From: Streptomyces sp. DG2A-72
GTDB taxonomy: Bacteria > Actinomycetota > Actinomycetes > Streptomycetales > Streptomycetaceae
Assembly (NCBI RefSeq): GCF_030499575.1
Contig: NZ_JASTLC010000001.1
Coordinates: 5,976,001 to 6,040,000 of the forward strand
DNA: 64,000 nucleotides
Direction of reading: 5' to 3'
Below are positions 14,993 through 28,851 of the stretch, one piece after another; position 1 is the stretch's first letter; each line of letters begins with the position of its first letter. The notes under the pieces were generated by a model. It was not told the origin of the DNA, ran no database searches, and saw only the letters and a program-made list of their open reading frames with translations. Position numbers and translations under genes: made by a program.

Positions 14993-17929
14993 ATGAGCTC
15001 GTACGGTCTCGGACGACGCCAGTTCCTGGCCACCGCTGTCGGTGTCGCCGCCGCCTGGACCCAGGTTTCCGGGAACGCCGTTGCCGCCCCGCAGCTGAAG
15101 CAGGCCGCACGTGGCAATTTCGTGCGTGTCTGGCTGACGGACGTGTCGGCCGACAAATGGGTTGCTGGCCAAAGCGATGTGCTGTTCCAGGCGAAGAGAA
15201 CAGCCAACCCGCTGACGATCAAGATCGACGACAGCGTCAAGTACCAAAAGGTCCAAGGCTTCGGGGCGGCTATGACCGATTCCTCCGCCTGGCTCATCGA
15301 CAAGCTGTCCACTGCTGAGCGGACCAAGCTGATGAACAAGCTGTTTGATCCCTCGAAGGGCATCGGCCTCAGCCTGCTCCGCTCTCCGATGGGCGCCACG
15401 GATTTCAACGCGTCCGGGAACTACTCCTACAATGACATGCCGGCGGGACAAACGGATCCGACGCTGTCCAACTTCTCCATCCAGCATGATGCGCCGTACA
15501 TCATTCCGGCATTGCGGCAGGCCCTCTCGCTCAATCCGTCCATCAAAATCATGGCCAACCCGTGGAGCCCGCCAGGCTGGATGAAGACCTCCGACTCCAT
15601 GATAGGAGGCACTCTCAAGAGCGAGTACACGTCAGCGCTGGCCAACTACTTCGTAAAGTTCATCCAAGCCTACGGCGAAGCCGGCGTGCCCATCGCCTAC
15701 ATTTCGCCGCAAAATGAGCCCATGGGAACTCCCACCTGGCCCGGCATGTTCCTGTCCGCTTACCAGGAGTCCGAGTTGATCCAGGAGATCGGCAAGGCGT
15801 TCGAGGCCAACGGAATTTCTACGAAGATTCTGGCGTGGGACCACAACTGGGATGTGCCCTCGTACCCCGAGACCATTTTCAGCGACCCCGCTGCCGCCAA
15901 GTACACCGCGGGAACCGGATGGCACATCTACAGCGGCAACCCGAACTACCAGACTCTGGTCCACAACGACTACCCGAATAAAGAAACCTACATCACGGAA
16001 GCCACCGGAGGCATTTGGCAGGACAGCAAGCAGACAGCGTTCAGCGAAGCACTCGGTACGTGGATCATCAAGGGCACGCGCAATTGGGCGAACGGGGTGA
16101 TGCTGTGGAACATCGCACTCGACCCCGATATGGGTCCGCTCAACAGCGACACCGACGGTATACCCATGCTTCGGGGCTTGCTCACGATCGATCCGGCCGA
16201 CGGAAGGGTTTCCTACAATGTGGACTACTACGCCCTCGCTCACGCCAGCAGGTTCGTCAAACCTGGAGCGCGTCGGATCTACTCGAACACCTTCGGGGAA
16301 GGAAGCATAGAGAACGTTGCGTTCCAGAACCCGGACGGATCGAAGGTCCTGATCGCGTACAACTCGGGAAGCGCAGCGAAAACCTTCAGCGTTGCCGACG
16401 GGACGCACTCTTTCGACTACACCCTGAACGCCGGCGACGCCGTCACCTTCACGTACTCCGGACCTGAGCAGAGCGGCCGTACCCCTGCAGCGACCAAGGT
16501 CTCGGATCCGACACACGACTTTACGTTCAAGTCGACGTCCGGTCCGGTTACTGTCACGTACGATCCGGCACTACTGCCCTATCAAAATGCAATCCGTAAC
16601 GGAAACAAGCTGGTCACGTATTCCCTGCCGATCGGAGCTTCTGTAGAGGCGACAGGAAGGGCGCTGAGCCGTAGCAAGTGGACCGCCACGGCTTCGGCGC
16701 AGGCGGATTGGGGTGTGGCCGCGAACGCGATAGACGGTGACATCAATACACTGTGGAGTCTCGGGCATGGGACGACGAGTGGCGACTGGTTCCAGATCGA
16801 TCTGGGAAGCCCTACGAGCTTCAATAAGATCGTCCTCGACACGGGCGTAAACAATTCGTTCGACTACGTCACTAAGTATCAGATATATGTGTCGAACGAT
16901 GGTGCCGATTGGGGCAGCGCGATTGCAAACGGCAGCGGAGGCATAGGAAAGACAGCCGTCACATTGCCGACACGGACGGCCCGGTACATTCGCATCGTCA
17001 GTGCCGCGACATCCGGTTTCTGGTGGGCCATCGGTGACATCAACGTGTACGGGTCTTCGCGTGGAACCGGTTCGATCACAGCTCCGGCAGCGGTATCAAA
17101 GGGCCTCCAGGTGAAGACCTGGACCAGCAAGGAAGGGACGCAGGTTACCGTAGTATTCAACGGGACCGCTGGAAGTAAGAGTTTCAAGATATCCACCGAC
17201 GGCTCGTATACTTATACGCTGCCGAGCGGGACCTCGGCGATGTTCACAACCAAGAAGTTGTCGAGCTTCCCGACGTCGGTCTTCAGCGGTTTGACGCCGA
17301 ATCGAGGCATACCGCGCGCCGAGTTCACGATTCGCGGTTCTGGTTTCGGTGACGCGCAGGGATTGGGCACGGTGTATTTCGGATCAAGCTATGCCGAAAT
17401 AGGTAGCTGGTCGGACACGAGCATCAGCGCTTACGTTCCCAAGGGGCTTCCGTCGGGGAAGGTTACGGTTTCTGTGAAGGGAACCAGTGGAGTGGATGCA
17501 GGTGGATCTTCGTTCGACGTCATCGATCTAGGTCCTGCGCTGCCGCGGACGGGCTGGACCGCAACGGCTTCGGACGCAAATCAGTGGGATGCGCCCGGAA
17601 GCATGCTCGATGGCGATTCTGGTACTCGGTACAGCTCCGGAACGGGGCAGTACGACGGCCTCTGGGTCCAAGTGGACATGGGGCAGACGCAGACGTTCAA
17701 CAAGATTGTGCTGGACGTCGGCGGCAGTGTCAGCGACTATGCGCGGACCGCAGACGTATACGTATCCACGGAGGGAACCGACTGGACCAAGGTTTCTTCC
17801 GTAGCAGACGGCCAACGAGTCCACCTGGTCTCCTTCCCGACGCAGACAGCTCGCTACATCAAGGTCGTCAATACCGACAATGTTGCGCGTAGCTGGTGGT
17901 CAATCGCAGAATTCAACGTCTACAACTGA
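14993..17929 (+). CDS. Secreted GH30 glycosidase with two F5/8C carbohydrate-binding domains
   Basis: 978-residue multidomain enzyme. The N-terminus (GRRQFLATAVGVAAA) is a twin-arginine signal. A GH30 catalytic domain spans about residues 60-480, with acid/base Glu242 in ISPQNEP and nucleophile Glu336 in YITEATGG. Then come an F5/8 type C (CBM32-like) domain (about 556-686), a linker, an IPT/TIG Ig-like domain (about 762-845) and a second F5/8C domain to the end. GH30 members of this kind cleave beta-1,6-glucan, glucosylceramide or related glycans. An AGGAGG site precedes the ATG. Base composition is clearly less GC-rich than its neighbours (for example the stretch 15960-16300), pointing to recent transfer. 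Confidence 0.9.
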   Translation: MSSYGLGRRQFLATAVGVAAAWTQVSGNAVAAPQLKQAARGNFVRVWLTDVSADKWVAGQSDVLFQAKRTANPLTIKIDDSVKYQKVQGFGAAMTDSSAWLIDKLSTAERTKLMNKLFDPSKGIGLSLLRSPMGATDFNASGNYSYNDMPAGQTDPTLSNFSIQHDAPYIIPALRQALSLNPSIKIMANPWSPPGWMKTSDSMIGGTLKSEYTSALANYFVKFIQAYGEAGVPIAYISPQNEPMGTPTWPGMFLSAYQESELIQEIGKAFEANGISTKILAWDHNWDVPSYPETIFSDPAAAKYTAGTGWHIYSGNPNYQTLVHNDYPNKETYITEATGGIWQDSKQTAFSEALGTWIIKGTRNWANGVMLWNIALDPDMGPLNSDTDGIPMLRGLLTIDPADGRVSYNVDYYALAHASRFVKPGARRIYSNTFGEGSIENVAFQNPDGSKVLIAYNSGSAAKTFSVADGTHSFDYTLNAGDAVTFTYSGPEQSGRTPAATKVSDPTHDFTFKSTSGPVTVTYDPALLPYQNAIRNGNKLVTYSLPIGASVEATGRALSRSKWTATASAQADWGVAANAIDGDINTLWSLGHGTTSGDWFQIDLGSPTSFNKIVLDTGVNNSFDYVTKYQIYVSNDGADWGSAIANGSGGIGKTAVTLPTRTARYIRIVSAATSGFWWAIGDINVYGSSRGTGSITAPAAVSKGLQVKTWTSKEGTQVTVVFNGTAGSKSFKISTDGSYTYTLPSGTSAMFTTKKLSSFPTSVFSGLTPNRGIPRAEFTIRGSGFGDAQGLGTVYFGSSYAEIGSWSDTSISAYVPKGLPSGKVTVSVKGTSGVDAGGSSFDVIDLGPALPRTGWTATASDANQWDAPGSMLDGDSGTRYSSGTGQYDGLWVQVDMGQTQTFNKIVLDVGGSVSDYARTADVYVSTEGTDWTKVSSVADGQRVHLVSFPTQTARYIKVVNTDNVARSWWSIAEFNVYN

Positions 17930-18186
17930 CCTCGGGCTTTCATGTGGGGTGATCGTTGACCTTGCCCCGACACAGAGCCGGCGCCAGCGTTGCCGTAGGG
18001 CCGGATCCGACCCCGGTACCACACCCCCTGCACACAGGCACCACCCAACCCTCATCCTGCACAACACGAGGAGGCACCACTTGAGAGGCCCGCGCTCAGC
18101 CGTGGGCAAAGGACAACACCGCGCCAGGCGGGTGGGCGTTGTCCGCGATCGCTGCTGTCGGCCGACGGCAGTCGGCGGTTCAACGG
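17930..18186. other. Intergenic region, no gene seen
   Basis: No supported coding sequence. A 9-bp match to half of the TGTCA-type operator (ATCGTTGAC, near 17951) is likely coincidental. The region separates the GH30 gene from a stretch of gene remnants. Confidence 0.4.
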
Positions 18187-18447
18187 CTAGCGATCAGTTC
18201 CGGAGGTCCTGATCATGACGGCGTACACCGGGGAGTCGGCGAACGGCTGCTGCTCGCCGACCTTCGTGTACCCCCATGATTCGTACAGTTCTTGCACCTT
18301 GGGCTGGGTCACGTCGACCAGGAGGACGGCGAGGTCTTCCGTGCGCTCCTTCAGCAGCGCTTCTTGGAGGCGTTCGGAGATGCCCTGTTTTGCCGGCGAG
18401 GGCGCACCTGGCGTTTTGTCGTTGCTTGACCGTAGTGGCCTGGTCAA
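18187..18447 (-). pseudogene. Truncated GNAT acetyltransferase
   Basis: The last 65 residues match the end of a GNAT N-acetyltransferase: ERLQEALLKERTEDLAVLLV, then LYESWGYTKVGEQQPFADSP and the terminal strand VYAVMIRT. The N-terminal half, including the first strands and the acetyl-CoA loop start, is missing. The sequence before GISERL is unrelated, low-complexity and joins a different frame. It appears to be a 3' remnant of a once longer gene. Confidence 0.65.
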
Positions 18448-18696
18448 GAGACTTCCGAAGCCAAGGCGCGGAGATTGGGGACGAGTTCGGGGTGATCACC
18501 GCGGGGACGAGGAGGGAGTACCCCAGCAGCATGGCGGCGTCGTAGCCGGCTGGTGTGCCGGGCATGTCGAGGTAGCGCGGGACGCTGCGGTCCACCCACT
18601 CCTGCCGTACGGCCACGACGCCTTCACGGAAGCGGAGGCCGAGGCGGAAGACGACGCTGACCCGCCCGCCGCCCAGGGCACATCAGTGCCCCCAGT
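18448..18696. other. Decayed coding sequence on the minus strand
   Basis: The minus strand is open at about 18480-18616 and encodes a protein-like stretch (QEWVDRSVPRYLDMPGTPAG, then YDAAMLLGYSLLVP) that stops making sense before it meets the GNAT remnant in another frame. I do not recognise the family. It is best read as debris of one or more broken genes. Confidence 0.35.
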
Positions 18697-18782
18697 GAAA
18701 CCCCAGCTCAGGGCCACACAAGGCAATAAGGCTGATGCCCCGCCTCATGCAGCCGATGGCTGAAGTCCTGTCACTCATGCAG
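18697..18782. repeat. 86-bp direct repeat, left copy (gene 3' end remnant)
   Basis: Matches 27881-27966 at all but about five of 86 positions. In the right copy this is the last 25 or so codons and stop of the conserved gene at 27892. Here, read on the minus strand, the same codons end in HRLHEAGHQPYCLVWP and stop, but a TGA replaces a TGG codon and homology ends at once upstream. The repeats bracket the biotin/Pxp gene cluster. Confidence 0.85.
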
Positions 18783-18909
18783 CGAATGGGAGCTGCAGGG
18801 GGTTGACCTGGGGTTTCTCCGTGAAGAGTGCGTTGTCGTCGTCCACGGCCGCGCCGATGAGCTCACGTGCGAGATGCCACCAACCTGCAGTCCGACTGCG
18901 GTACCTCGC
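18783..18909. other. Intergenic region after BioY, no gene seen
   Basis: Lies between the left direct repeat and the BioY stop codon. I see no gene, hairpin or integrase remnant in these 127 bp. Confidence 0.35.
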
Positions 18910-19503
18910 TCACGGACGGATGCGTGCCACTCCCCGCCACGCCAGTGGCAGCAGTCCCGCCGCCACCGCTGTCTTGAGGGCGTCGGTGACCAGGAAGGGG
19001 GTGACGCCCTTCGCGATGGCGTCCTGGAGGCCGAGGTGCAGGTGCAGGGCCAGCCAGGTGGCTCCGGTCAGGTAGATGACGGTATTGCCGAGGGCCATCA
19101 GGCCGATGGTGCCGACGACGCTGCGGTCGTTGCCGCGGCGGGCGAGTTCGCCGACGAGCAGGGCGGCGAGGACGAAACCGACGATGTAGCCGAAGGCCGG
19201 GCCGCCTGCGCCATGGCTGTGGTCGGCGAACCAGGGGACTCCGGCGGCGCCCGCGGCGAGGTAGAGGACCATCGAAGCGGCCCCGCGTGCGGTGCCGAGT
19301 GCCGCGCCGGTGAGGAGGACGGCCAGGGTCTGGAGGGTGAAGGGGACCGGGCTGAGCGGGGTCTGGAGGGAGACCTGCGCGGCGAGGCCGGTGAGACCGG
19401 CGCCGCCGGTGACAAGGAGAGTGTCGCGGAGCAGGGCCGAACCCGGGATGCGGTCGGCGAGTACTCCCGGCCGGGTCAGAGGCTGGAGGGTGGCAGTGGC
19501 CAT
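18910..19503 (-). CDS. bioY: BioY-type biotin transporter
   Basis: 197-residue membrane protein of the BioY family, the biotin-binding S component of energy-coupling factor importers. Five to six hydrophobic helices are visible. Family features are the region QVSLQTPLSPVPFTLQTLAV near residue 43, ARGAASMVLYLAAGAAGVPWF and the late segment IYLTGATWLAL with AIAKGVTPFLVTDALKTAVA. BioY can work alone or with shared EcfA/EcfT subunits; none are encoded here. It follows the biotin carrier gene by 58 bp, so this operon brings its own supply of the cofactor that its carboxylase needs. Confidence 0.92.
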   Translation of the reverse strand: MATATLQPLTRPGVLADRIPGSALLRDTLLVTGGAGLTGLAAQVSLQTPLSPVPFTLQTLAVLLTGAALGTARGAASMVLYLAAGAAGVPWFADHSHGAGGPAFGYIVGFVLAALLVGELARRGNDRSVVGTIGLMALGNTVIYLTGATWLALHLHLGLQDAIAKGVTPFLVTDALKTAVAAGLLPLAWRGVARIRP

Positions 19504-19561
19504 GGAAGTGGGTTCCGTTCTCGGGGACTTGGCGGGCTCGGGGGAGTGGAGGCAGGCGGGC

Positions 19562-19777
19562 TCAGGAGATCTCGGCGATCAGGGCGCCCTCTTCGAGGAC
19601 GTCGCCCTCGCTGATGGCGAGCTTGGTGACGGTGCCCGCGGTGTCCGCCTCGACGGGGATCTCCATCTTCATCGATTCGAGGATCGCGAGCTGGTCGCCG
19701 ACGGCGACGACGCTGCCCTCGGTGACCAGCACCTTCCATACGTTGGCGGCGAGGTCTGCGGTGATCTGCTGGGCCAT
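19562..19777 (-). CDS. Free-standing biotin carrier (BCCP-type) protein
   Basis: 71-residue protein consisting of a single biotinyl-lipoyl domain with the biotinylation motif ESMKMEIPV; the central Lys carries biotin. It ends in GDVLEEGALIAEIS, the last half of the barrel. The ATG at 19777 has a GGAGA site; a longer open frame upstream lies over the biotin carboxylase gene and is spurious. The protein would shuttle carboxybiotin between the biotin carboxylase at 19788-21149 and a carboxyltransferase. Unlike BCCPs of fatty acid synthesis it lacks the long Pro/Ala-rich N-terminus. Confidence 0.92.
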   Translation of the reverse strand: MAQQITADLAANVWKVLVTEGSVVAVGDQLAILESMKMEIPVEADTAGTVTKLAISEGDVLEEGALIAEIS

Positions 19778-19787
19778 CGGGGGTCTC

Positions 19788-21149
19788 CTAACGTTCCTGG
19801 CGGGGGGCGCGCATGCGGGTGACGAGGCCGGTGGTGTAGGTGCCGTCGGCGAAGGCGGGTTCGTCGAGGAGTTCGGTGAAGAACGGCAGGTTGTTCTTGG
19901 GCCCGCTGATGGCGAAGGACGCGAGCGCGTCACGTGCCCGGGCGAGTGCCTCCTCACGAGAGTCCGCGTGCACGATCAGCTTCGCCATGAGCGAGTCGTA
20001 CGCCGGTGTCACCTTGGTGGCCTCGGCGTATCCGGAGTCGACGCGCACGCCCTCTCCGGTGGGCTCGACCCATGCGGCGACCGCGCCGGGGCCGGGCAGG
20101 AACCGGATCGGGTCCTCGGCGTTGACCCTGAACTCGACCGCGTGGCCTCGCGGTTGTACGGCCGTGAGGTCCACGGTCGGTGGCAGTCCGGACGCCACGC
20201 GCAGTTGCTCCTCGACCAGGTCGACGCCGAACACCGCCTCGGTGACGGGGTGTTCGACCTGGAGCCGGGTGTTCATCTCCAGGAAGACGAAGTCCTGGGC
20301 GCCCGTCTCGCCGTACACCAGACACTCCACGGTCCCGGCGTTGCGGTAGCCGACGGCCTTGCCGACCTCGGCGGCGGCGGTGAGCATGCGCTCGCGCAGC
20401 GAGGGGTCGAGTGCGGGTGAGGGGCTCTCCTCGACCAGTTTCTGGTTGCGGCGCTGCACGGAACAGTTGCGCTCGCCGAGGGCCACCACCGTGCCGTCGG
20501 CGAGTCCGAGGATCTGTACCTCGATGTGCCGGGCGTCGGGGTAGTAGCGCTCCAGGAGGATGCCGGGATCGCCGAACAGCCGGGCGGCGAAGCCGGACAC
20601 GGCCGTGTACTGCTTGCGCAGCTCCGCCTCGTCGGTGGCGATGCCCATGCCCATGCCACCGCCACCCGCGGACGCCTTGACCATGATCGGGTAGCCGATG
20701 TCCGCCGCGGCGACCACGGCGGTGGCCTCGTCGGTCACCGGGTCGACGGTGCCGGGCGCGACGGGCATCCCGGTGGCGGCGACCGCGTTCCGGGCGTTGA
20801 TCTTGTCGCCCATCAGGTCGATGACCTCGGGGTCCGGGCCGACCCAGACCAGGCCCGACTCCCGCACCCGGCGGGCGAACTCGGCGTTCTCGGAGAGGAA
20901 TCCGTAGCCGGGGTGAATGGCCGCCGCGCCCGTCTTCAGGGCGGCTCGCAGGACCCGGTCGGCATTGCGATACGACTCCGCGGGCGCCGCCGGACCGATC
21001 TCCACCGCTTCGTCGGCCTCGGCCACGAACGGCAGTCCGGCGTCGACATCGCTGTGCACGGCGATCGTACGGATGCCGAGCCGGCGGGCGGTGCGGATGA
21101 TGCGGCGGGCGATCTCGCCCCGGTTGGCGATCAGCAACGACTCGATCAC
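19788..21149 (-). CDS. Biotin carboxylase (AccC-type) subunit
   Basis: 453-residue ATP-grasp enzyme that carboxylates biotin on its carrier with bicarbonate and ATP. The N-terminal IANRGEIARRIIRTARRLGI, the glycine-rich ATP loop KASAGGGGMGMGIA near 165 and the catalytic segment FLEMNTRLQVEHPVTE near 290 are all intact. It starts within the 3' end of pxpA (ATGA-type overlap) and ends 10 bp before the carrier gene. The partners here are not an acyl-CoA carboxyltransferase but AHS1/AHS2 proteins, so acetyl-CoA or propionyl-CoA is unlikely to be the acceptor. The domain matches the BC part of urea carboxylase in function. Confidence 0.93.
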   Translation of the reverse strand: MIESLLIANRGEIARRIIRTARRLGIRTIAVHSDVDAGLPFVAEADEAVEIGPAAPAESYRNADRVLRAALKTGAAAIHPGYGFLSENAEFARRVRESGLVWVGPDPEVIDLMGDKINARNAVAATGMPVAPGTVDPVTDEATAVVAAADIGYPIMVKASAGGGGMGMGIATDEAELRKQYTAVSGFAARLFGDPGILLERYYPDARHIEVQILGLADGTVVALGERNCSVQRRNQKLVEESPSPALDPSLRERMLTAAAEVGKAVGYRNAGTVECLVYGETGAQDFVFLEMNTRLQVEHPVTEAVFGVDLVEEQLRVASGLPPTVDLTAVQPRGHAVEFRVNAEDPIRFLPGPGAVAAWVEPTGEGVRVDSGYAEATKVTPAYDSLMAKLIVHADSREEALARARDALASFAISGPKNNLPFFTELLDEPAFADGTYTTGLVTRMRAPRQER

Positions 21150-21925
21150 GGCGTCACCACCAGGTCTGCCAGCGGCACTGTTTCGATGCCGTGTTCAACG
21201 AACGCCGTGTGTACGGCGGTTGCGGTCTCCACCGCGTTGGGCGCGTCCCCGTGCAGGCACAGGGAGAGGGCGTCGACATCGAGCTCCGTTCCCTCGTTCG
21301 CCTCGACCTTGCGCTCCAGCACCATGCGCACCGCACGGCGGGCGACGAGGTCCGGGTCCCAGGCGAGCTTGACCGGCTCGATGACGAGGTGTCCGGAGCC
21401 GTCGTAGTGCAGGTCGGGGAAGGCTTCCGGGACGAGCGTGATGCCCTCGGCGGCGACGGCGTCCGTGGTGCTGCGGTTGAGCAGCATCAGCGGCAGGGAC
21501 GGGTCGGTCTTGGCGACGGCACGGGCGACGGCGGCGGCCAGTCGTGGGTCCTCGGAGGCCATGACGTACAGGGCGCCGTGCGGTTTCACGTGGGCGAGCC
21601 GCCCGTCCGCCGACCGTACGAAGGCGTCCAGCGCGCCGAGTTGGTAGAGGCAGTAGTCCTCCAGGTCCTCGGGCGCGACCGTCATGCGGCGTCGCCCGAA
21701 ACCCATCAGGTCGGGGAAGGCCAGGTGGGCGCCGACGGCCAGGCCGTGCTCCACGGCCGCTGCGACGGTACGGCGGATGGTGGGCGGGTCGCCGGCGTGG
21801 TAGCCGGTGGCGATGTTGACCGAGGTGAGGTACGGCATCATGCCCAGGTCGTCGCCGAGGCTCCAGCGGCCGAAGCTCTCGCCCATGTCACAGTTGATGT
21901 CGATGCGGGGGGAGGTGCCGGCCAT
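21146..21925 (-). CDS. pxpA: 5-oxoprolinase subunit A (LamB/YcsF family)
   Basis: 259-residue LamB/YcsF protein. Signature motifs are DINCDMGESFGRWSLGDD at the N-terminus, NIATGYHAGDP, VGAHLAFPDLMGFGRR, HVKPHGALY and the late SLCLHGDAPNAV. In PxpABC, PxpA is the metal-independent-looking TIM-barrel partner of the ATP-dependent opening of 5-oxoproline to glutamate. The gene overlaps both neighbours by 1-4 bp, so translation is coupled. Association with a biotin carboxylase suggests a related but distinct lactam or cyclic ureide as substrate; this is inference. Confidence 0.92.
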   Translation of the reverse strand: MAGTSPRIDINCDMGESFGRWSLGDDLGMMPYLTSVNIATGYHAGDPPTIRRTVAAAVEHGLAVGAHLAFPDLMGFGRRRMTVAPEDLEDYCLYQLGALDAFVRSADGRLAHVKPHGALYVMASEDPRLAAAVARAVAKTDPSLPLMLLNRSTTDAVAAEGITLVPEAFPDLHYDGSGHLVIEPVKLAWDPDLVARRAVRMVLERKVEANEGTELDVDALSLCLHGDAPNAVETATAVHTAFVEHGIETVPLADLVVTP

Positions 21926-22911
21926 CAGAGTTCCTCGTAGTGCTGGGGGTCGGTGGTGTAGTCGGCGCGGGCGGCGAGCGAGAGTGCCTCGTCGAGGGAG
22001 ACCTCGCGGAAGCGGATGGTGTCGCGGCCCGGCCGCAGCTGGCCGGTCTTCCACAGGCCGGCTTGCACGACCGTGCCGATGACGGTGAAGCCGCCGGCGG
22101 TCGGCCCGTCGGGGCCGAGGATGACGGGGACGTCGCCGTTGGTGTTGATGCCGCCGAACGGGTAGCTGCCGTCGAGCACGTTGGAGGGGTGGCCGCCGGC
22201 GACACCTCCCGACGGCCGGGCCCACTGGAAGCGGTGGGCCTGGAGGCGGGTGCCGACGCGGTTGGCGTTGAGGTCGACCTTCCACTCGCGACCCAGCAGG
22301 TCCTTCCAGTCCTGTTCAGTGAGGAAGTCGGGGTTGGCGTGCGGGCCGCGCATCACCTCGACCTCCCAGTCGTTGGCCAGAGCCGGGCGTAGGGCCGTGG
22401 GGACACGCAGCCGGGCGGGCTCGGGCGCGTGCAGGGCGTGCAGGACATCGCCCTTGGCCAGCGCGCGGCCTTCCACTCCGCCGATGCCGCCCATCGTGTA
22501 GGTGGCGCGGGAGCCGAGCACGGTGGGCACGTCGATGCCGCCGGCCACCGCCAGGTACAGGCGGAAACCCGGGCCCTTGACGATCGCGCACTTGATCTCG
22601 TCGCCCGGGACGACCCGGACGGTCTCCCACAGCGGCATCGGCTCACCGTTGAGGGTGATGCCCGAGCCCTCGGCGCCGGTGACGGCCACCGACGTCGCCG
22701 CGAGCACGTTCAGGGTCAGGCGGCCCATGGGGATCTCCAGGGCGGCGGCCCCGACGTCGTTGCCGACGAGGGAGTTGGCGACGCGGAAGGAGAGGTGGTC
22801 CATCGGCCCGGCCGGGAAGAAGCCCCTGGACTGCAGGCCCCGGCGGCCCGGGTAGTCCTGCACCAGGGTCTGCAGCCCGGGCGAGACCACGTCGAAGACG
22901 GCAGTCGACAT
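21925..22911 (-). CDS. AHS2 / PxpC-type carboxyltransferase-domain protein
   Basis: 328-residue protein of the AHS2 family, which is found as PxpC of 5-oxoprolinase, as KipA, and as a domain of urea carboxylase. Conserved parts include VVSPGLQTLVQDYPGRRGLQ, PAGPMDHLSFRVANSLVGN, LYLAVAGGIDVPTVLGSRAT and SNVLDGSYPFGGINTNGDVP. In urea carboxylase the AHS1 and AHS2 parts together transfer carboxylate from biotin to urea. It lies head-to-tail with the AHS1 gene at 22912 with no gap, in keeping with a heterodimer. Confidence 0.9.
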   Translation of the reverse strand: MSTAVFDVVSPGLQTLVQDYPGRRGLQSRGFFPAGPMDHLSFRVANSLVGNDVGAAALEIPMGRLTLNVLAATSVAVTGAEGSGITLNGEPMPLWETVRVVPGDEIKCAIVKGPGFRLYLAVAGGIDVPTVLGSRATYTMGGIGGVEGRALAKGDVLHALHAPEPARLRVPTALRPALANDWEVEVMRGPHANPDFLTEQDWKDLLGREWKVDLNANRVGTRLQAHRFQWARPSGGVAGGHPSNVLDGSYPFGGINTNGDVPVILGPDGPTAGGFTVIGTVVQAGLWKTGQLRPGRDTIRFREVSLDEALSLAARADYTTDPQHYEEL

Positions 22912-23874
22912 TTACGGCACCTCCATACGGGCGGCCGCCGCCTCGCGGGCGGTGCGCAGCGTGTCGGCCTCGGCGCGCACCGCTTCGGCGCGCTCCAGGT
23001 AGTCGGCGACCGAGAACGGATCGTCCTCGATCATGTACTCGTAGCGGTTCTCCAGCACGTCCCGGCGGGCGGCGAGCAACTGGTCCTCGCTCACCCGCAG
23101 GAACCGCACGCGGTCGCCGGGGCGGATCAGCAGCGGGTCCTCGCGGAAGACGTCGTGCCGGGCGAGGATGTCGTAGACGGGCACGGTGCGGCCGAAGAGC
23201 TGGTAGCCGCCCGGGGACTCCACCGGGTAGATGGCCACGCAGGGGCCGCCGATGCCGACCGCGCCCTCGGCGGTCCAGGTGCGGGTCGGGTTGTATTTCG
23301 GCACGGTGATGGCGTTGCGGGGGTCGAGCGGGAACATGAACGGCAGGCCCGGGAAGAAGCCGGTGTAGGCGTTCCACCACTCGGTGCCGGTGACGGTCTC
23401 GTACAGCGCCTCGGGGCCGTCGAGCCCGTTGTACTCCACGATGTAGTCGATGTTGGAGTTGTCGCGAACGTTCGGGGCGTCCTGCCGGATGGTGGTGGCG
23501 TAGCGCCGTACGGCCTCCCGGCTCTCCGCGTCGGCGAAGGCGATCGGCAGCGTGATGAGCCGGCTCGGGATGGTCAGGGAGCGGACGGACTCCTGGGCGT
23601 CGTGCACCTCCTCCAGGGCTGCGATGAGATCCTTGCGGTCGATGGCAGCCGGCTCGTACTGCACGAGCAGGGAGCGGAAGCCGGGGGCGCCCTCCACCAG
23701 GCCGGGCACCGGGTGTGCGGCCAGGCGGGCGGAGACGGCGGTGACGAAGAAGTTCAGTTCCAGGTCGAGTGCCATCTCGCCGTACTCGACGAGCACGTAC
23801 CGGTCGCCCGCGGCGCGGTAGGTGATGGCGGGCCGGTCGGTGTCGGCGGCCCGGCTGTGGATGATCGCGGTCAC
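22912..23874 (-). CDS. AHS1 / PxpB-type carboxyltransferase-domain protein
   Basis: 320-residue AHS1 (KipI/PxpB) family protein. Recognisable parts are GDRYVLVEYGEMALDLELNF, the central TGFFPGLPFMFPLDPRN and GGPCVAIYPVESPGGYQLFG with TRTVPVYDI-like sequence after it. It is longer than typical PxpB (about 220-240): extra sequence lies at about 125-180 and at the charged C-terminus (YLERAEAVRAEADTLRTARE, probably helical). That length resembles the AHS1 part of urea carboxylase. It would form the carboxyltransferase with the 21925 product. The start at 23874 lies 35 bp after the permease stop. Confidence 0.88.
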   Translation of the reverse strand: MTAIIHSRAADTDRPAITYRAAGDRYVLVEYGEMALDLELNFFVTAVSARLAAHPVPGLVEGAPGFRSLLVQYEPAAIDRKDLIAALEEVHDAQESVRSLTIPSRLITLPIAFADAESREAVRRYATTIRQDAPNVRDNSNIDYIVEYNGLDGPEALYETVTGTEWWNAYTGFFPGLPFMFPLDPRNAITVPKYNPTRTWTAEGAVGIGGPCVAIYPVESPGGYQLFGRTVPVYDILARHDVFREDPLLIRPGDRVRFLRVSEDQLLAARRDVLENRYEYMIEDDPFSVADYLERAEAVRAEADTLRTAREAAAARMEVP

Positions 23875-23908
23875 GGGTCCTCTTTCTTTCGGAGGCTGGG
23901 CGGCGGTC

Positions 23909-25429
23909 TCAGCGGCCGTCCGCCGCGCAGGCGGAGCAGACGACGGTGGCCTTGGCGGTCCGGTCCATCTCGACGGCGATGTAACTGCGGTCGCAGGCGT
24001 GGCAGCGCACCCGGGCCTCCCAGATGTCCTCGACCTCGTCGCGCGGGTCGTCCCCGGTGCGGCGGACGGCGTCGGGCGCGAACTTCAGGGCGAGCCAGTA
24101 CAGTCCGGCGGCCAGGGCGACGGTGACCAGCGGCGCCAGCTGGGCGAGTACGGCGCTGCCCTTCTGCTCGGTGAGGACGATCCCGACGACGGAGGCGGCC
24201 ACCCATGCCCCGGCCCCGGCAGTGACGGGGACGAGCCGCAGCGGGCGGAACTCGGGCAGTCCGTCGCGGTCGGCGCCGCGTACGGCGATGTGGACCAGGG
24301 CGATGGCGATCCAGGCGGTGACGAAGACGCCCTGCCAGGCCAGCGCACGCAGCAGGTAGCTGAGCACGTCGGTCAGCATCAGCAGGTAGGCGATGACCCC
24401 GGAGACCGCGACCCAGGCGGCGCGCGGCAGCCTCAGGCGCAGGACGCGGGCGGCGAAGGCTTCCAGGTTGGTGGAGGCGAGGTAGTAGTTGGCGGTGTTG
24501 ATACGGGTCTGGGACACGACGATCACCAGGACCCCGGCGAACCCGAGGGTGTCGATGAAGGCGTCCACCACGCCGGTCTCGGATCCGGCGATGTTCCAGG
24601 CACGGAGCAGGTAGATGCCGATGAGCCCGTTGACGGCGAAGGTGAAGAAGTAGAACACCCAGCCGAAGGTGACCGTGCCGTGGAACTTCTGGTCCTCGGC
24701 CTTGCCGAAGCGGGCGAAGTCGATGGTGTACATCATCATGATCCACACGCCCATGTAGATCAGGTACGACGTCAGCCAGCCCGGCAGCGTTCCGGCGGAG
24801 GCCGCCGAGTGCAGCCAGTCGTGCGGGTAGCCCTGCTTGACGGTGGCCGTGACGACGACGGCGATCAGTCCGGCGACGTACAGCGGCAGCAGTACCCCGT
24901 TGAGCTTGTCCAGCCAGGTTCGCACTCCGCCGATCACCAGCGGCAGGGCGTACACCACCACGACCAGGTACCAGATCTTGATGTCGCCGCCGAAGTACTT
25001 CTGGAAGGCCACGGCGACGATCGAGCCCTCGAACACCCCGTAGTAGAGGGCGGTGGCGGCGAAGATCAGGGGCGCCAGCGCCGAGCCGAGCGTGCCGAAC
25101 AGACGGCGCGAGAGCAGGGCGACGGTCAGACCGGTACGGGCCGCGTACCGCGACAGCACCAGGTTGACCATGCCGTACGTCACGACCGTCAGGGCTATGC
25201 CCGCGAGCGTGGCCGGGGTGCCGACGGCGTCCGCCGAGGCCACTGCGACGTAGAGCCAGAACATGGCCGAGAACATGGCCCACCAGGCCATCGTCAGCGA
25301 CCAGCGGCCCGATCGCCAGGACAGCGGGACGACGTGGGTGGAGTAGTCCTCGGTGGCGGCCTCCTTGACGACTCTGGGGTCGTCGGTGAAGGAGACCTCC
25401 AGCACCGGGCGCTCTGAGGTCGTGGACAT
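23909..25429 (-). CDS. NCS1-family permease with zinc-ribbon-like C-terminus
   Basis: 506-residue transporter with about 12 membrane helices, of the nucleobase-cation-symport-1 family that imports purines, pyrimidines, hydantoins or allantoin. It begins with a soluble tail, then WSLTMAWWAMFSAMFWLYVA; IDFARFGKAEDQKFHGTVTF and SQTRINTANYYLASTNLEAF are conserved family regions. After the last helix a cytoplasmic tail contains Cys476-x2-Cys479 and Cys498-x2-Cys501, a zinc-ribbon pattern I do not associate with this family. It heads the carboxylase operon, so its substrate is probably the substrate or precursor of that enzyme. AGGAGA precedes the ATG. Confidence 0.9.
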   Translation of the reverse strand: MSTTSERPVLEVSFTDDPRVVKEAATEDYSTHVVPLSWRSGRWSLTMAWWAMFSAMFWLYVAVASADAVGTPATLAGIALTVVTYGMVNLVLSRYAARTGLTVALLSRRLFGTLGSALAPLIFAATALYYGVFEGSIVAVAFQKYFGGDIKIWYLVVVVYALPLVIGGVRTWLDKLNGVLLPLYVAGLIAVVVTATVKQGYPHDWLHSAASAGTLPGWLTSYLIYMGVWIMMMYTIDFARFGKAEDQKFHGTVTFGWVFYFFTFAVNGLIGIYLLRAWNIAGSETGVVDAFIDTLGFAGVLVIVVSQTRINTANYYLASTNLEAFAARVLRLRLPRAAWVAVSGVIAYLLMLTDVLSYLLRALAWQGVFVTAWIAIALVHIAVRGADRDGLPEFRPLRLVPVTAGAGAWVAASVVGIVLTEQKGSAVLAQLAPLVTVALAAGLYWLALKFAPDAVRRTGDDPRDEVEDIWEARVRCHACDRSYIAVEMDRTAKATVVCSACAADGR

Positions 25430-25512
25430 GAACGTCTCCTGAAGGGGGAGCGAGCGGGGAGGGGTGGGACCAAGGTGCGGTGCGGCCCCCCGGGCGCCCA
25501 ATGCGCGATGTG

Positions 25513-25529
25513 CGTAATCGCGTATTACG
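25513..25529. promoter_or_regulatory. CGTAAT inverted repeat before permease operon
   Basis: Perfect 6-bp arms CGTAAT / ATTACG around a 5-bp spacer, 84 bp before the permease start and just after the pucR stop. This AT-rich dyad stands out in GC-rich surroundings and is a candidate PucR or other regulator site for the permease-carboxylase operon. Confidence 0.5.
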
Positions 25530-25563
25530 TTTGCGCCATCTGCGGACTGGCCGGGGTGGGCCT

Positions 25564-27066
25564 TCAGCGGTCCCGCACGGTGAACGCCATCCACAGCTCC
25601 GCGCGCAGTCCGGGGTCGGAGAACCGCCGGCCCAGCAGCGTCTCGGCACGCCCGAGGCGATAGGTGAGGGTCCGGCGGTGGATGCTGAGGGCGGCCGAGG
25701 CGGCTTCGGTGTTGCCGTTGTGCGCGAGATAGGTCCGTACCGTCTGGAGAAGATCGATGCGCCGGGCGTCCTCGGACTCCAGGGGTGCGAGGGTGGCGTA
25801 CGCCCATCCCTCGGCCTTCGCCGGGCTCACATGCGCCAGCAGGCCCTCGTGGGCGACGTCCTTGGTCGCCAGCAGGCGGCCGGTCGCGGAGGCGGGCAGG
25901 GTGTCGGCGAGTGCCGCGATCTTGGGCCAGACATCGGCCAGCCCGTTCAGATCGGCGGGTTCGCTGATGACGCCGAGACTCCCGCTCGTCCGGCTGAGCA
26001 CGGTCTGTACGACGCCTGCGTCCCCCTCGACGGCGGGCAGCACGACCACGACGCGTCCCTGGGCGTCCCCGGCCACCAGCGCCGAGACGATCTGCAGGCT
26101 GCGTTCGTCCTCCAGCGCCTCCAGCAGATCGACCCGCCGGGCCGGGGAGGTGGTGAGGGCGGCGATCCGCACCGGCGGTTCCGGCAGCGGGATGCCCAGT
26201 GCCTCCGCGGCCTCCTCGGCCGCCGCGACACGGCCCGACATAAGCATGGACAGCACCGTGGCCCGCTCCCGGCGCTCACTGTCCATCAGCTCCGCGGCCT
26301 GGGCCACACCGAGCGACAGCAGATCCACGGCGACGTCGACCACGCCCCGCTCGTGCCCGCGCAGCGGGGCGGCCCGGCCGACGGCCAGCACTCCCGCCGG
26401 GCGGGCGCCCTGGCCCACCGGCAGCAGGGTCACCCGGGTACCGCCGTGGTCGAACGCCGCCGCGTGCCAGGACCGGGCACGGGCCACCTCCAGCCGGACC
26501 CGCTCGGCATGGCGCCGGGCGTTCTCCGGCGCCCCGGCCAGCAGATGCCCCTCCCGGGACAGCAGCAGCACCCACGCGTCGAGTTGTCCTGCCAGCCGGG
26601 TGACCACGGACCTGTGCGGCGGCGGGGTCAGTGCCGCCCGGACCAGCCCGCGGTAGCCCTCCATGGCGGCGGTCTGCTCGGCACGCTCCTCGGTCATCAG
26701 CCCGTCGGCCACCCTCCGGACCACCGCGCTGAACGGTGTCGCCTGCGGCACCTCGGCCACACTCAGCCCGCACCGGGCCGCTTCGGTGAGCAGCGCCTGC
26801 GGCACCTCGGCATGCCGCAGCCCCACCCCGAACCCGACCGCGGGCACGCCCGCCCGCACCAGCCGGTCGACGTACTCCGGCCAGCGGCGACTGGTCCGCC
26901 CCAGGCTCAGCCCGGTCGTCAGCAGCAGGCTGTCCCGGTCCAGATACGGCGTCGGATCGACGAGATCACTGACATGCGCCCACCGCACGACCACGTCGGC
27001 GCTTCCGGTGCGCAGCTTCAGGCCGAGGTCCTGGTGAGCGAGCAGACCCGCCAGAGTGAGGGGCAC
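25564..27066 (-). CDS. PucR-family transcriptional regulator
   Basis: 500-residue regulator. The N-terminal PucR domain (LTLAGLLAHQDLGLKLRTGS, then WAHVSDLVDPTPYLDRDSLL) is followed by a GGDEF-like central region and the C-terminal PucR helix-turn-helix (VRTYLAHNGNTEAASAALSI, then HRRTLTYRLGRAETLLG). PucR proteins activate purine-catabolic genes in Bacillus and Streptomyces. It is co-directional with the permease operon 134 bp downstream and is its likely controller. The GTG start at 27066 agrees with the family N-terminus but lacks a ribosome site, because an IS element ends only 13 bp upstream. Confidence 0.9.
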   Translation of the reverse strand: MPLTLAGLLAHQDLGLKLRTGSADVVVRWAHVSDLVDPTPYLDRDSLLLTTGLSLGRTSRRWPEYVDRLVRAGVPAVGFGVGLRHAEVPQALLTEAARCGLSVAEVPQATPFSAVVRRVADGLMTEERAEQTAAMEGYRGLVRAALTPPPHRSVVTRLAGQLDAWVLLLSREGHLLAGAPENARRHAERVRLEVARARSWHAAAFDHGGTRVTLLPVGQGARPAGVLAVGRAAPLRGHERGVVDVAVDLLSLGVAQAAELMDSERRERATVLSMLMSGRVAAAEEAAEALGIPLPEPPVRIAALTTSPARRVDLLEALEDERSLQIVSALVAGDAQGRVVVVLPAVEGDAGVVQTVLSRTSGSLGVISEPADLNGLADVWPKIAALADTLPASATGRLLATKDVAHEGLLAHVSPAKAEGWAYATLAPLESEDARRIDLLQTVRTYLAHNGNTEAASAALSIHRRTLTYRLGRAETLLGRRFSDPGLRAELWMAFTVRDR

Positions 27067-27079
27067 GCGGCCAGGCTAA

Positions 27080-27840
27080 GGGCTCCTTTCGGAATGCTGG
27101 GTGCTTGCGGGCGAGGGTCATGCAGTGGGCGAGCTGGAGGAAGGCGTCGTGCATGTCGTCTCGGGCTTCCCCAGCGGGTCCGTAAGCGGCGGGGACCGTG
27201 GAGCCGGGCGACGGCGGACTCGGCGACCCACCGCACCCGGCCCAGGCCATGTGGCTGACCGCGCCTGGCGATCTTCGGGACGATGCCGCGCTCGCGCAAC
27301 CGGCGGCGATACAGGTCGTGGTCGTACCCGCGATCGGCATACAACGCCCGGGGCTTGCGCCGGGGCCGGTCCCGCTTGCCCCGCACCGGCGGTACGCCGT
27401 CGACCAGAGGCAGGAGCTGCGTGACGTCGTTGCGCTGTCCGCCGGTCAGCGACACTCGCAGCGGGGTGCCGTGCGCATCGGTCAGTATGTGGTGTTCCGG
27501 GCCCGGCCGCGCACGGTCAACCGGACTCGGACCGGCTTTTGGGCTGCTTCGCCCCCGCTTGGCCTGCACATGCGAGGCATCGACGGTGACGCGGTCGAAG
27601 TCCAAGCGGTCCGCCGCCCGCAACCGGTCCAGCAGCACCCGCTGGAGTTGCTCCCCCACCCCGGCCTCCTGCCATTCAGCCAGCCGCCGCCAACAGGCAG
27701 GACCGGAACCGAAGCCCAACACCCTGCAGCGTCTTGCGGTCATCGATCCGCTTACGCCCCGGGTGCCACGGGTCACCCCCACAAAGACGGAACCACTTCC
27801 ATCTCCACCGTGCCACAGGAAGATCATTCTGCAAGGACCC
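27080..27840 (-). mobile_element. Defective IS5-family insertion sequence
   Basis: A 761-bp element. Its ends are imperfect inverted repeats (GGGCTCCTTTCGGAATG at 27080; GGGTCCTTGCAGAATG inward from 27840), and a 4-bp CTAA flanks it on both sides (27076-27079 and 27841-27844) as a target-site duplication. It carries a degenerate transposase. Intact ends and duplication show a transposition insertion rather than a rearranged fragment. Confidence 0.82.
27090..27820 (-). pseudogene. IS5-family transposase, frameshifted and deleted
   Basis: DDE transposase remnant. The catalytic domain is recognisable (DRVTVDASHVQAKRG; GPSPVDRARPG; LYADRGYDHD; RRGQPHGLGRVRWVAE). The N-terminal part WHPGRKRIDDRKTLQGV lies in another frame and is joined to LGFGSGPACWRRLAEWQEAG with roughly 17 expected residues missing. 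Near 27174 a one-base shift moves the C-terminus (EARDDMHDAFLQLAHC, KHPAFRKEPL) into another frame. A programmed frameshift would not explain the lost codons, so the gene is dead. Confidence 0.82.
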
Positions 27841-27880
27841 CTAAAAAAGGCGAGGCCCGAAGACCCCGCCCGAATCCCAA

Positions 27881-27966
27881 GAAACCCCAGGTCAGGGCCA
27901 CACAAGGCAATACGGCTGATGCCCCGCCTCATGCAACCGATGGCTGAAGTCCTGCCACTCGTGCAG
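27881..27966. repeat. 86-bp direct repeat, right copy (gene 3' end)
   Basis: Near-identical to 18697-18782. It spans the stop codon and last codons of the conserved hypothetical gene at 27892 plus 11 bp beyond it, starting 37 bp past the IS target duplication. Direct orientation and position at a gene's 3' end resemble attachment-site repeats. Confidence 0.85.
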
Positions 27967-28515
27967 CAGTTGATACACATTGAACGCATCCCGGGGCCCA
28001 CCCCGGTCCGGCACAGTCGACCAGATGAACGCAGCCGCGCCCACCGCTTCCTCGCCGATCCCCCGCAGCGGGTCCACGACGGTCATGGGGAGTTTGACGA
28101 CGGCGTAGTCGGGGTGGAGGACGACCAGTTCCAGGGGTGGCACCTTGTACAGGGGGACGCCCTCGATGCCCGTGAGTACCATCGCGGCCATCGTCTCGGG
28201 CTTGATCTTGGTGAACATGCCGTTCATGCCGAGCTCGTCGCCGCCGAGTTCCTCGGGGCGCATCGAGATCGGGACGCGGGCCGCGGTCGCGCCGTCAGGT
28301 GCGCCGAAGTACTTGTACGTCACCCCCACCCGACCACCATTCCTGCTCCCCGCCCGCAGCCGCTCGACCCGCTGGTCGTGCCGCTCGGGCTCCTGTCCAC
28401 CCTGTGCCTGACGTGACTCAGCCGCTTCCTCCGCCTCGCGCCGGTGCCTGCCCCCTCGGGCACGTCGAGGACCCAGGTCGTCAGTCCCCTCGCCCAGTCC
28501 GCCACCGCGATGCAT
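27892..28515 (-). CDS. Conserved hypothetical protein (possible upstream frameshift)
   Basis: Family not recognised by function. From about 28323 down, the protein is well ordered: YKYFGAPDGATAARVPISMR, GMNGMFTKIKPETMAAMVLT, LELVVLHPDYAVVKLPMTVV, and ending HEWQDFSHRLHEAGHQPYCL then VWP. Upstream the frame stays open (QEPERHDQRVERL) to an ATG at 28515, but a more natural N-terminus (MEICIAVADWARGLTTWVLD) lies in a neighbouring frame starting at 28523. A one-base shift near 28445 would join the two. A short form from the GTG at 28323 is possible but has no clear ribosome site. The 3' end is duplicated at 18697-18782. Confidence 0.6.
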   Translation of the reverse strand: MHRGGGLGEGTDDLGPRRARGGRHRREAEEAAESRQAQGGQEPERHDQRVERLRAGSRNGGRVGVTYKYFGAPDGATAARVPISMRPEELGGDELGMNGMFTKIKPETMAAMVLTGIEGVPLYKVPPLELVVLHPDYAVVKLPMTVVDPLRGIGEEAVGAAAFIWSTVPDRGGPRDAFNVYQLLHEWQDFSHRLHEAGHQPYCLVWP

Positions 28516-28851
28516 ATCTCCACCCGACTGCTTTTCTAGGACGCGTGGCCCCCGCCGCGCAACCCGATCATCGTGTCAGTGACCTCCCCCACGGCCGCCC
28601 GCCGAAACGTGCGTTGAAACACCTGTCCGCAGGATCTTCGCAGCCCCTGAACAAGCCTCGCCACAGCATGGCCGGTGAGGGCTCCCGTATGACATACGTA
28701 CGGGACCCCCGTTTGAGCTGTGTGTATCAGGTCTCAGTTTCGCAGACGGGGAGACGGGTGGGGGACCACGTCCGGTTCCTCCGCCGCCTACCCTGAGGAG
28801 GTCACCAGGAGAAGCCCAGGAAATCGGAGAAGGTCGGAGAAGTCGCCGGAC
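28516..28851. other. Intergenic region with palindrome before hemL
   Basis: Divergent promoter region between the hypothetical gene and hemL. The perfect 13-bp palindrome CGTATGACATACG at 28686-28698 lies within a wider dyad (CCCGTA at 28684, TACGGG at 28699), a plausible operator 150 bp before hemL. A purine-rich leader (28798-28845) precedes the hemL start. No coding sequence supported. Confidence 0.5.

What the first reader, a model, noticed from the sequence alone, without database searches (positions are those of the whole stretch)
18910..25429. Split biotin-dependent carboxylase joined to PxpA, an NCS1 importer and BioY
One operon encodes biotin carboxylase, a 71-residue biotin carrier, AHS1 and AHS2 proteins, a LamB/YcsF amidohydrolase, an NCS1 permease and a BioY importer, with a PucR gene upstream. 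Seen: all key motifs and coupled starts. Known: urea carboxylase fuses BC-AHS2-AHS1-BCCP, and PxpABC opens 5-oxoproline with ATP but without biotin. Inferred: this is a modular machine that carboxylates a cyclic amide, ureide or hydantoin with carboxybiotin and then opens it with PxpA. The substrate would enter by the NCS1 permease and biotin by BioY. I know no established substrate for this gene set.
Basis: partly seen in the sequence, partly recalled or inferred. Interest (0 to 1): 0.8.

Follow-up and report, generated by a model that had tools for sequence, protein, structure and literature searches.

The report
Split biotin-driven lactam-opening enzyme operon
A Streptomyces operon appears to encode a multi-part enzyme that uses the vitamin biotin and ATP to activate and then open a very stable ring-shaped amide, probably a lactam, so the cell can use it as food; relatives sit in many soil bacteria, but its chemistry has not been shown here.

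Summary
The genes are real and at the stated places: NCS1 permease, AHS1, AHS2, PxpA-type hydrolase, biotin carboxylase (BC), 71-residue biotin carrier (BCCP) and BioY in one tightly coupled minus-strand operon, PucR upstream. AHS1/AHS2 are not ordinary PxpB/PxpC. In the tree they stand beside the urea/guanidine carboxylase transferase and keep its catalytic lysine (K193), but lack the aspartate (D1584) found in 44 of 44 fused urea/guanidine-type enzymes examined. In 25 related loci with at least 9 kb on both sides, PxpA is present in 24, BC in 23, BCCP in 23. PxpA has lost two arginines invariant in 27 of 27 PxpA of PxpB/C clusters, as expected if the substrate lacks the carboxylate of 5-oxoproline. 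GABA transaminase lies in or near the cluster in 4 of 61 and 3 of 8 relatives of two clades, some with succinate-semialdehyde dehydrogenase. Best reading: a split bacterial counterpart of fungal LamA/LamB; carboxybiotin activates a neutral lactam (2-pyrrolidinone-like), PxpA opens it. The host also holds urease, a guanidine-signature carboxylase and two PxpABC sets without BC. The window's own substrate is unproven: NCS1 importer, no GABA genes beside it. New variant of a known kind; chemistry untested.

The parts
25564..27066 (-). PucR-family regulator (500 aa)
   Evidence: PF07905 72 bits, HTH_30 67 bits; a PucR-type gene is also near the pair in many split-type relatives
23909..25429 (-). 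NCS1-type importer (506 aa) with a C-terminal CxxC...CxxC tail
   Evidence: homologues named purine-cytosine permease; model pLDDT 86.8 matches CodB 7qoa and Mhp1 2jln; no Pfam match
22912..23874 (-). AHS1 / carboxyltransferase subdomains C-D (320 aa); K193 = KlUA K1605; no residue at KlUA D1584
21925..22911 (-). AHS2 / carboxyltransferase subdomains A-B (328 aa); N256 = KlUA N1330
   Evidence: CT_A_B 268 bits; TIGR02712 331 bits versus PxpC NF045499 146 bits, cut-off 500
21146..21925 (-). PxpA/LamB_YcsF-type ring-opening hydrolase (259 aa); L172 and E183 where PxpB/C-linked PxpA have R and R
   Evidence: PF03746 286 bits; residues
19788..21149 (-). biotin carboxylase (453 aa)
   Evidence: three BC Pfam domains; aligned to solved biotin carboxylases
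19562..19777 (-). biotin carboxyl carrier, 71 aa, ESMKMEI, K37
   Evidence: NF004547 93 bits over cut-off 75
18910..19503 (-). BioY biotin uptake protein (197 aa)
   Evidence: PF02632 128 bits; BioY also near 11 of 61 group A and 3 of 8 group E loci
18697..18783 (+). left copy of an 87-nt direct repeat bracketing the operon
   Evidence: 94% identical to 27881-27967; only two places found in the genome
27018..28001 (-). DDE transposase ORF covering the right repeat copy (27881-27967)
   Evidence: PF01609 53 bits

Best explanation
The operon encodes a split, biotin-dependent lactam-opening system. BC uses ATP and bicarbonate to carboxylate biotin on the 71-residue carrier (inferred from family). 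The AHS1-AHS2 pair, a carboxyltransferase of the urea-carboxylase type with a changed substrate pocket, moves the carboxyl group to the ring amide of a small neutral lactam (N-carboxylation most likely; O-carboxylation of the lactim not excluded). PxpA hydrolyses the activated ring; the carbamate on the freed amine loses CO2, so bicarbonate is consumed and released and ATP drives the ring opening. The NCS1 permease imports the substrate, BioY supports biotin supply, PucR controls the genes. Most likely substrate class: a five- or six-membered lactam without a carboxylate, such as 2-pyrrolidinone (to GABA). All chemical steps are inferred, and the substrate is least certain for the window itself.
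For: Clade: an unrooted AHS1+AHS2 tree of 122 sequences puts the window in group A (support 0.985); urea/guanidine carboxylases (0.999) lie on the same side of a fully supported split from PxpB/C and groups B/E. Catalytic lysine K193 (KlUA K1605, probable general base, K1605A severely inhibits; PMC5770610, passages): K in 59 of 61 group A, 9 of 10 B (one gap), 8 of 8 E, 44 of 44 fused; R in 31 of 31 distinct PxpB-type loci (32 rows, L099 and L158 are one place). The two group A exceptions, L023 and L024, show no BC, PxpA or BCCP; four K loci at contig edges (L038, L052, L056, L057) show none either; exact test on BC or PxpA presence p = 0.011. Pocket: KlUA D1584, part of the published guanidine carboxylase signature (PMC11410670, passages), is D in 44 of 44 fused and absent in 61 of 61 A. 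Gene set: of 25 A loci with 9 kb or more on each side, PxpA 24, BC 23, BCCP 23. PxpA: R172 and R183 in 27 of 27 PxpB/C-linked, versus L172 in 43 of 44 (one gap) and E183 in 40 of 44 where no second pair was found. Downstream: GABA transaminase over the curated cut-off, co-directional with the cluster, in L031, L036, L065, L069 and, within about 3-5 kb but with oppositely directed genes between, in clade E L190, L192, L193; SSADH-type inside the run in L031 (below cut-off) and over cut-off in L193. Biotin: BioY near 11 of 61 A and 3 of 8 E. Physical precedent: 9yx5 title; AccA3 and AHS chains in one entry.
Against: No activity, biotinylation or growth was measured. No GABA gene was recognised beside the window operon (one search list, by eye; the class-III aminotransferase at 28720-30168, scores 131 of 506.65 bits for GABA transaminase); the host's one match over cut-off is about 1.7 Mb away. 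GABA-transaminase linkage is uneven: 4 of 61 A and 3 of 8 E versus 0 of 31 distinct PxpB-type; A+E p = 0.096, A alone 0.30, E alone 0.006. Hydantoinase A genes lie in 4 of 61 A loci too (L020, L032, L048, L070). The lysine is not a strict marker of BC linkage: 5 PxpB-type loci (L156-L159, L178) have a BC nearby and keep R. That the PxpA arginines bind the 5-oxoproline carboxylate is inference; clade E keeps R172 (7 of 8, one gap). The host has bioB, so BioY may be dispensable.
Confidence: 0.6

Rival explanations
1. Same carboxybiotin-PxpA mechanism, but the window's substrate is a cyclic ureide, hydantoin, imide or pyrimidine rather than a simple lactam.
For: NCS1 fold closest to CodB (cytosine) and Mhp1 (hydantoins); PucR family; hydantoinase A genes in 4 of 61 A loci; polysaccharide-deacetylase-type genes further downstream in L019, L020 and L022 and an asparaginase gene in L022; HIBADH-like gene in 8 loci (scores of the two tested are below the curated cut-offs), as dihydrothymine breakdown could need.
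Against: GABA transaminase/SSADH near the cluster in two clades; no dihydropyrimidinase recognised beside the window operon (one search list, by eye only, no search).
Confidence: 0.25
2. An ordinary PxpABC 5-oxoprolinase with BC and BCCP as bystanders or for acetyl-CoA carboxylase.
For: PxpA family membership; S. aureus has BC+BCCP+pxpABC in one operon, read as separate functions (PMC11315280, passages); C. glutamicum pxpTABC is needed for 5-oxoproline growth, and the passages seen name no biotin partner (PMC13274462).
Against: AHS1 74 bits versus PxpB cut-off 145.55, AHS2 146 versus PxpC cut-off 500; separate clade; K193 not R; lost PxpA arginines; host already holds two PxpABC sets with no BC within the 19 kb held around each; no AccD-type domain among the eight proteins tested.
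Confidence: 0.08
3. A split urea or guanidine carboxylase.
For: Beside those enzymes in the tree; N256 matches the urea-type N1330.
Against: D1584 absent in window and 61 of 61 relatives; the only allophanate hydrolase over cut-off lies at 1.777 Mb behind the fused guanidine-signature enzyme; two near-full-length urease alpha matches in the host; no Rfam match at gathering score in 17000-29000, so no known guanidine riboswitch.
Confidence: 0.05
4. An inactive or repurposed locus brought in by a mobile element.
For: 87-nt direct repeats and a transposase flank it; only 4 of 295 genomes of the host genus, the host included, have AHS1 at 50% identity or more.
Against: All frames intact and coupled; motifs kept; AHS1 80-86% identical, with the order AHS1-AHS2-PxpA-BC-BCCP, in four loci of other genera (L019-L022).
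Confidence: 0.05

Closest known systems
Fungal LamA/LamB lactam utilisation (Aspergillus nidulans)
   Same: A biotin carboxylase-type protein (LamA) works with a PxpA-family protein (LamB); needed for 2-pyrrolidinone to GABA (function and the link LamA = P38095 recalled; the 1,241-aa A. nidulans 'urea carboxylase', the query P38095, and the missing amidase seen in passages of PMC3073912)
   Different: LamA is one fused chain; here four chains.
Urea / guanidine carboxylase (TIGR02712; KlUC 3va7)
   Same: BC, CT and BCCP functions; CT residue K1605; closest solved structure
   Different: Split; D1584 absent; partner is PxpA, not allophanate hydrolase
PxpABC 5-oxoprolinase
   Same: PxpA family and AHS1/AHS2 folds
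   Different: Different CT clade, K instead of R at 193, own BC/BCCP, PxpA arginines lost
M. smegmatis long chain acyl-CoA carboxylase with MSMEG_0435-MSMEG_0436 (PDB 9yx5)
   Same: An AHS1/AHS2 pair reported bound to a biotin carboxylase complex (entry title only; AccA3 chains)
   Different: PxpB/C-type pair by score on a shared AccA3; whether a dedicated BC/BCCP exists for it was not looked for
S. aureus pxpB-pxpC-pxpA plus accB-accC six-gene operon (PMC11315280)
   Same: Same five functions in one operon
   Different: PxpB/C-type by name (its sequence was not examined here); read there as separate pathways
OplAB / CapAB ATP-dependent lactamases
   Same: ATP-driven lactam opening, bicarbonate possibly involved (PMC11033972, PMC8453981, passages)
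   Different: Not PxpA/AHS proteins; no biotin role stated in the passages seen

Membership tests
Urea carboxylase | single fused BC-CT-BCCP chain | tested here: not met
   four separate ORFs
Urea carboxylase | Asp at KlUA 1584 | tested here: not met
   gap at that column in the window and 61 of 61 relatives; D in 44 of 44 fused
Urea carboxylase | Asn at KlUA 1330 and Lys at KlUA 1605 | tested here: met
   N256, K193
Urea carboxylase | allophanate hydrolase partner beside it | tested here: not met
   only host match over cut-off is at C1:1.777 Mb, not in the window
Guanidine carboxylase | Asp at KlUA 1330 and 1584 | tested here: not met
   N256 and gap
PxpABC 5-oxoprolinase | PxpB and PxpC equivalog scores | tested here: not met
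   74 of 145.55 and 146 of 500 bits
PxpABC 5-oxoprolinase | PxpA family (PF03746) | tested here: met
   286 bits
PxpABC 5-oxoprolinase | turns over 5-oxoproline | not testable with these tools
   needs enzyme assay
LamA/LamB lactam system | biotin carboxylase-type CT machine plus PxpA-family partner | tested here: met
LamA/LamB lactam system | sequence orthology to LamA | not tested
   P38095 letters not available; of the 120 listed relatives of the joined query, 119 keep the GLGDV aspartate motif and the other is an AHS1-AHS2 fusion without BC
LamA/LamB lactam system | needed for growth on 2-pyrrolidinone | not testable with these tools
   needs mutant growth test
Biotin carboxyl carrier | biotin attachment MKM motif and family score | tested here: met
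   ESMKMEI, NF004547 93.1 over 75
Biotin carboxyl carrier | actually biotinylated | not testable with these tools
   needs streptavidin blot
Acetyl-CoA carboxylase BC subunit (TIGR00514 / NF006367) | curated score | tested here: not met
   505 of 626.5 and 543 of 597 bits
NCS1 transporter | Pfam family score | tested here: not met
   no Pfam match
NCS1 transporter | fold and homologues | tested here: met
   CodB and Mhp1 best; some homologues with PF02133
BioY | PF02632 | tested here: met
   128 bits over 25

The most novel reading that the evidence does not exclude
A further class of biotin-dependent carboxylase whose acceptor is a lactam: carboxylation, not phosphorylation, is the general way the AHS1/AHS2 family activates cyclic amides. 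Clades A, B and E carry their own BC/BCCP; PxpB/C-type pairs, 5-oxoprolinase included, may borrow carboxybiotin from a shared acyl-CoA carboxylase (as 9yx5 hints) or have switched chemistry with the K-to-R difference.
Probability: 0.3. Interest if true: 0.8.

Novelty: new variant of a known kind. Interest (0 to 1): 0.62.

Why it matters
[quoted passage not shown] If these operons open such lactams with carboxybiotin, they supply that enzyme, give a new acceptor for biotin chemistry, correct many 'urea carboxylase / allophanate hydrolase / 5-oxoprolinase / acetyl-CoA carboxylase' gene names, and make the old question of how LamA/LamB works testable in a bacterium.

Tried and rejected
Rejected: coincidence of neighbours (conserved set across phyla); urea and guanidine; plain PxpABC; known riboswitch control (no Rfam match at gathering score). 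Led nowhere: hunting a fused LamA-like relative (119 of the 120 listed keep the urea/guanidine aspartate motif); the plasmid collection (269 records, 40 listed; only Thermomicrobium roseum reads as split type, the others listed match at 41% or less, mostly annotated urea carboxylase). No paper joining BC/BCCP, AHS1/2 and PxpA into one enzyme was seen in the listings, which cover an open-licence library only; Niehaus 2017, the PxpABC discovery paper, is not held and is known to me from recall. The K/R rule as a strict marker of biotin use was weakened by five BC-linked PxpB-type loci. The GABA-transaminase contrast for A+E together is not significant (p = 0.096). Some weaker matches were not counted as GABA transaminase or SSADH: L073 and L077 (153-167 bits; the L071 member of that cluster scored as a HemL-type protein) and aldehyde dehydrogenases in L023, L030, L035, L061, L064. 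In one search no fold outside the urea carboxylase/PxpB/KipI group stood out for AHS1; that is no proof of absence.

Counting notes: group A was set by BLAST score to the window (250 bits or more), not by BC. Sample bias: the one genome scan used AHS1 relatives of the window and kept 80 of 328 loci. Rows dropped: L015, L126, L128, L129; L184-L186 (repeats of L018, L041, L042). One place was counted twice (L099 lies within L158); counts here are given for 31 distinct PxpB-type loci, and the 26 with full flanks and the 27 PxpA are not affected. For the tree, 122 of 160 paired sequences were used (every third fused one, short ones out; L099 and L158 both out), FastTree. PxpB-type loci came from the best 30 loci of 148 genomes of the host phylum; 19-kb stretches were fetched for most, not all, of them.


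Full report

THE HOST ALREADY HAS THE OBVIOUS ENZYMES. Elsewhere in the genome: two PxpA with PxpB-type partners and no BC in the 19 kb held around each (L004, L005); a fused 'urea carboxylase' at 1.775 Mb with the guanidine signature D at 1330 and 1584, followed by the only allophanate hydrolase over cut-off; two near-full-length urease alpha matches (a third, 26-bit partial match is also over cut-off); bioB; and one GABA transaminase over cut-off. The window operon is therefore probably redundant for urea and 5-oxoproline.

CONSERVATION. One genome scan gave 80 loci: 61 split-type (group A), 17 fused, 2 outliers. In the 61, AHS2 is present in 61, PxpA 54, BC 42, BCCP 48, BioY 11, many contigs being short; with 9 kb or more on both sides (25 loci) PxpA 24, BC 23, BCCP 23. 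Record titles include Actinobacteria (with Solirubrobacterales), Thermomicrobium and other Chloroflexi, Rokubacteria and a Deltaproteobacterium. Of 26 PxpB-type loci with the same flanks, 5 have BC. Within the host genus the split type is rare: AHS1 at 50% identity or more in 4 of 295 genomes, the host included, against 92 of 295 with any match at E 1e-40, nearly all of these about 40% identical and in long frames like the fused enzyme.

CLADES AND RESIDUES. The AHS1+AHS2 tree shows four groups: A (window), D (urea/guanidine carboxylases), B+E (PxpA-linked and mostly BC-linked, AHS1 about 30% identical) and PxpB/C. At KlUA K1605, the likely general base of urea carboxylase (PMC5770610, passages), groups A, B, D and E have K (59 of 61; 9 of 10, one gap; 44 of 44; 8 of 8); distinct PxpB-type loci have R in 31 of 31. 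The two A exceptions are L023 and L024, in which no PxpA, BC or BCCP was found; L024 has only 13.6 kb held, and four K loci at contig edges also show none. KlUA D1584, part of the published guanidine carboxylase signature (PMC11410670, passages), is present in 44 of 44 fused enzymes and absent from all A, B, E and PxpB-type sequences aligned. At 1330, which separates urea (N) from guanidine (D) enzymes, the window has N256; group A has N in 40 of 57 aligned, and the 17 others fall in L023/L024 and in 15 loci with a second AHS pair and/or oxygenase genes. PxpA: R172 and R183 are invariant in 27 of 27 PxpB/C-linked proteins; the 44 from A loci without a second pair have L172 (43, one gap) and E183 (40). 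I infer, without a ligand structure, that the arginines hold the carboxylate of 5-oxoproline, so the A-type substrate lacks it.

WHAT THE NEIGHBOURS SAY. In L031 the run is GABA transaminase, binding protein, ABC ATPase, permease, AHS1, AHS2, PxpA, SSADH-type, BioY, all on one strand, with BC and BCCP further off on the other strand; L036 and L065 have GABA transaminase, transporter, AHS1, AHS2, PxpA, BCCP, BC in line; L069 also has the transaminase upstream on the same strand. These four score 547-575 bits against the TIGR00700 cut-off of 506.65; the SSADH-type protein of L031 scores 560 against 646. In clade E, L190, L192 and L193 carry GABA transaminases over the same cut-off, and L193 an SSADH over cut-off, some 3-5 kb from AHS1 with oppositely directed genes between; L187, L190, L191 and L193 have a molybdenum-hydroxylase large subunit just behind the cluster. 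T. roseum has molybdenum hydroxylase subunits, a TorT-like binding protein, ABC transporter, BCCP, AHS1, AHS2, PxpA and BioY in line and accC divergent. A speculative route that fits: cyclic imine to lactam by the hydroxylase, lactam to amino acid by this machine, then transaminase and SSADH. None of the 31 distinct PxpB-type loci has a GABA transaminase or SSADH match at E 1e-40, but the contrast for A+E is not significant (p = 0.096; E alone 0.006). Against one substrate for all: hydantoinase A genes in four A loci, HIBADH-like genes in eight, toluene-monooxygenase-like and HpaB genes in the subgroup with a second pair.

MECHANISM. Shown by sequence: parts, motifs, clade, linkage. Inferred: carboxybiotin formation, transfer to a ring amide, ring opening by PxpA, loss of CO2. 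The logic copies urea carboxylase plus allophanate hydrolase and would let one ATP drive hydrolysis of a very stable ring. Precedent that an AHS pair can dock on a biotin carboxylase is the title of PDB 9yx5, with AccA3 chains in the same entry; I saw no paper on it.

KNOWN VERSUS NEW. The gene combination is known as an operon in S. aureus (PMC11315280, passages) and, fused, as fungal LamA plus LamB (function recalled; P38095 in PMC3073912, passages). I saw no paper in the searched library that treats BC, BCCP, AHS1/2 and PxpA as one enzyme (search calls listed under Tried and rejected). So this is a new variant of a known kind: a split, bacterial, dedicated version with a diagnosable pocket, its own importer and biotin uptake.

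MOBILITY. An 87-nt repeat, 94% identical, brackets the operon at 18697 and 27881, the right copy inside a DDE transposase ORF; these are the only two copies found in the genome, in line with recent acquisition.

MENDED IN CHECKING. One PxpB-type place had been counted twice, so 32 became 31 and the p-values moved slightly; hydantoinase and molybdenum-hydroxylase neighbours were family-tested.

Noticed in passing
L023:6800-20900, L024:8200-13618: Amycolatopsis loci keep PucR, NCS1 (only C-terminal fragments in L024) and the AHS1/AHS2 pair but show no PxpA, BC or BCCP; AHS1 K193 is R and N256 is A. L023 has aconitase X, ComA-like and aldehyde dehydrogenase genes next to it: possibly a biotin-free reuse of the pair.
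   Followed up: partly
L027, L040-L043, L045, L062, L066, L067, L074: Loci with two AHS1/AHS2 pairs beside one PxpA/BC/BCCP set; several also carry toluene-monooxygenase-like (PF02332) and/or HpaB oxygenase genes; the A-type pair there has lost N256.
   Followed up: partly
window:23909-24010: The NCS1 permease ends in a CHAC...CSAC tail that looks like a zinc ribbon; unusual for this family as far as I recall.
   Followed up: no
window:18697-18783 and 27881-27967: 87-nt direct repeats, 94% identical, bracket the operon; a DDE transposase ORF covers the right copy; no other copies found in the genome.
   Followed up: yes
G000:C1:1774685-1778836 (L009): The host's fused 'urea carboxylase' has the published guanidine carboxylase signature (D at 1330 and 1584), as do 41 of 44 fused enzymes examined at 1330, and is followed by allophanate hydrolase.
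   Followed up: partly
L156-L159, L178: PxpB/C-type clusters with a BC nearby that keep R at the K193 position.
   Followed up: no
L039:2221-3570: A BioA-type transaminase (over cut-off) sits beside the cluster: another biotin link.
   Followed up: no
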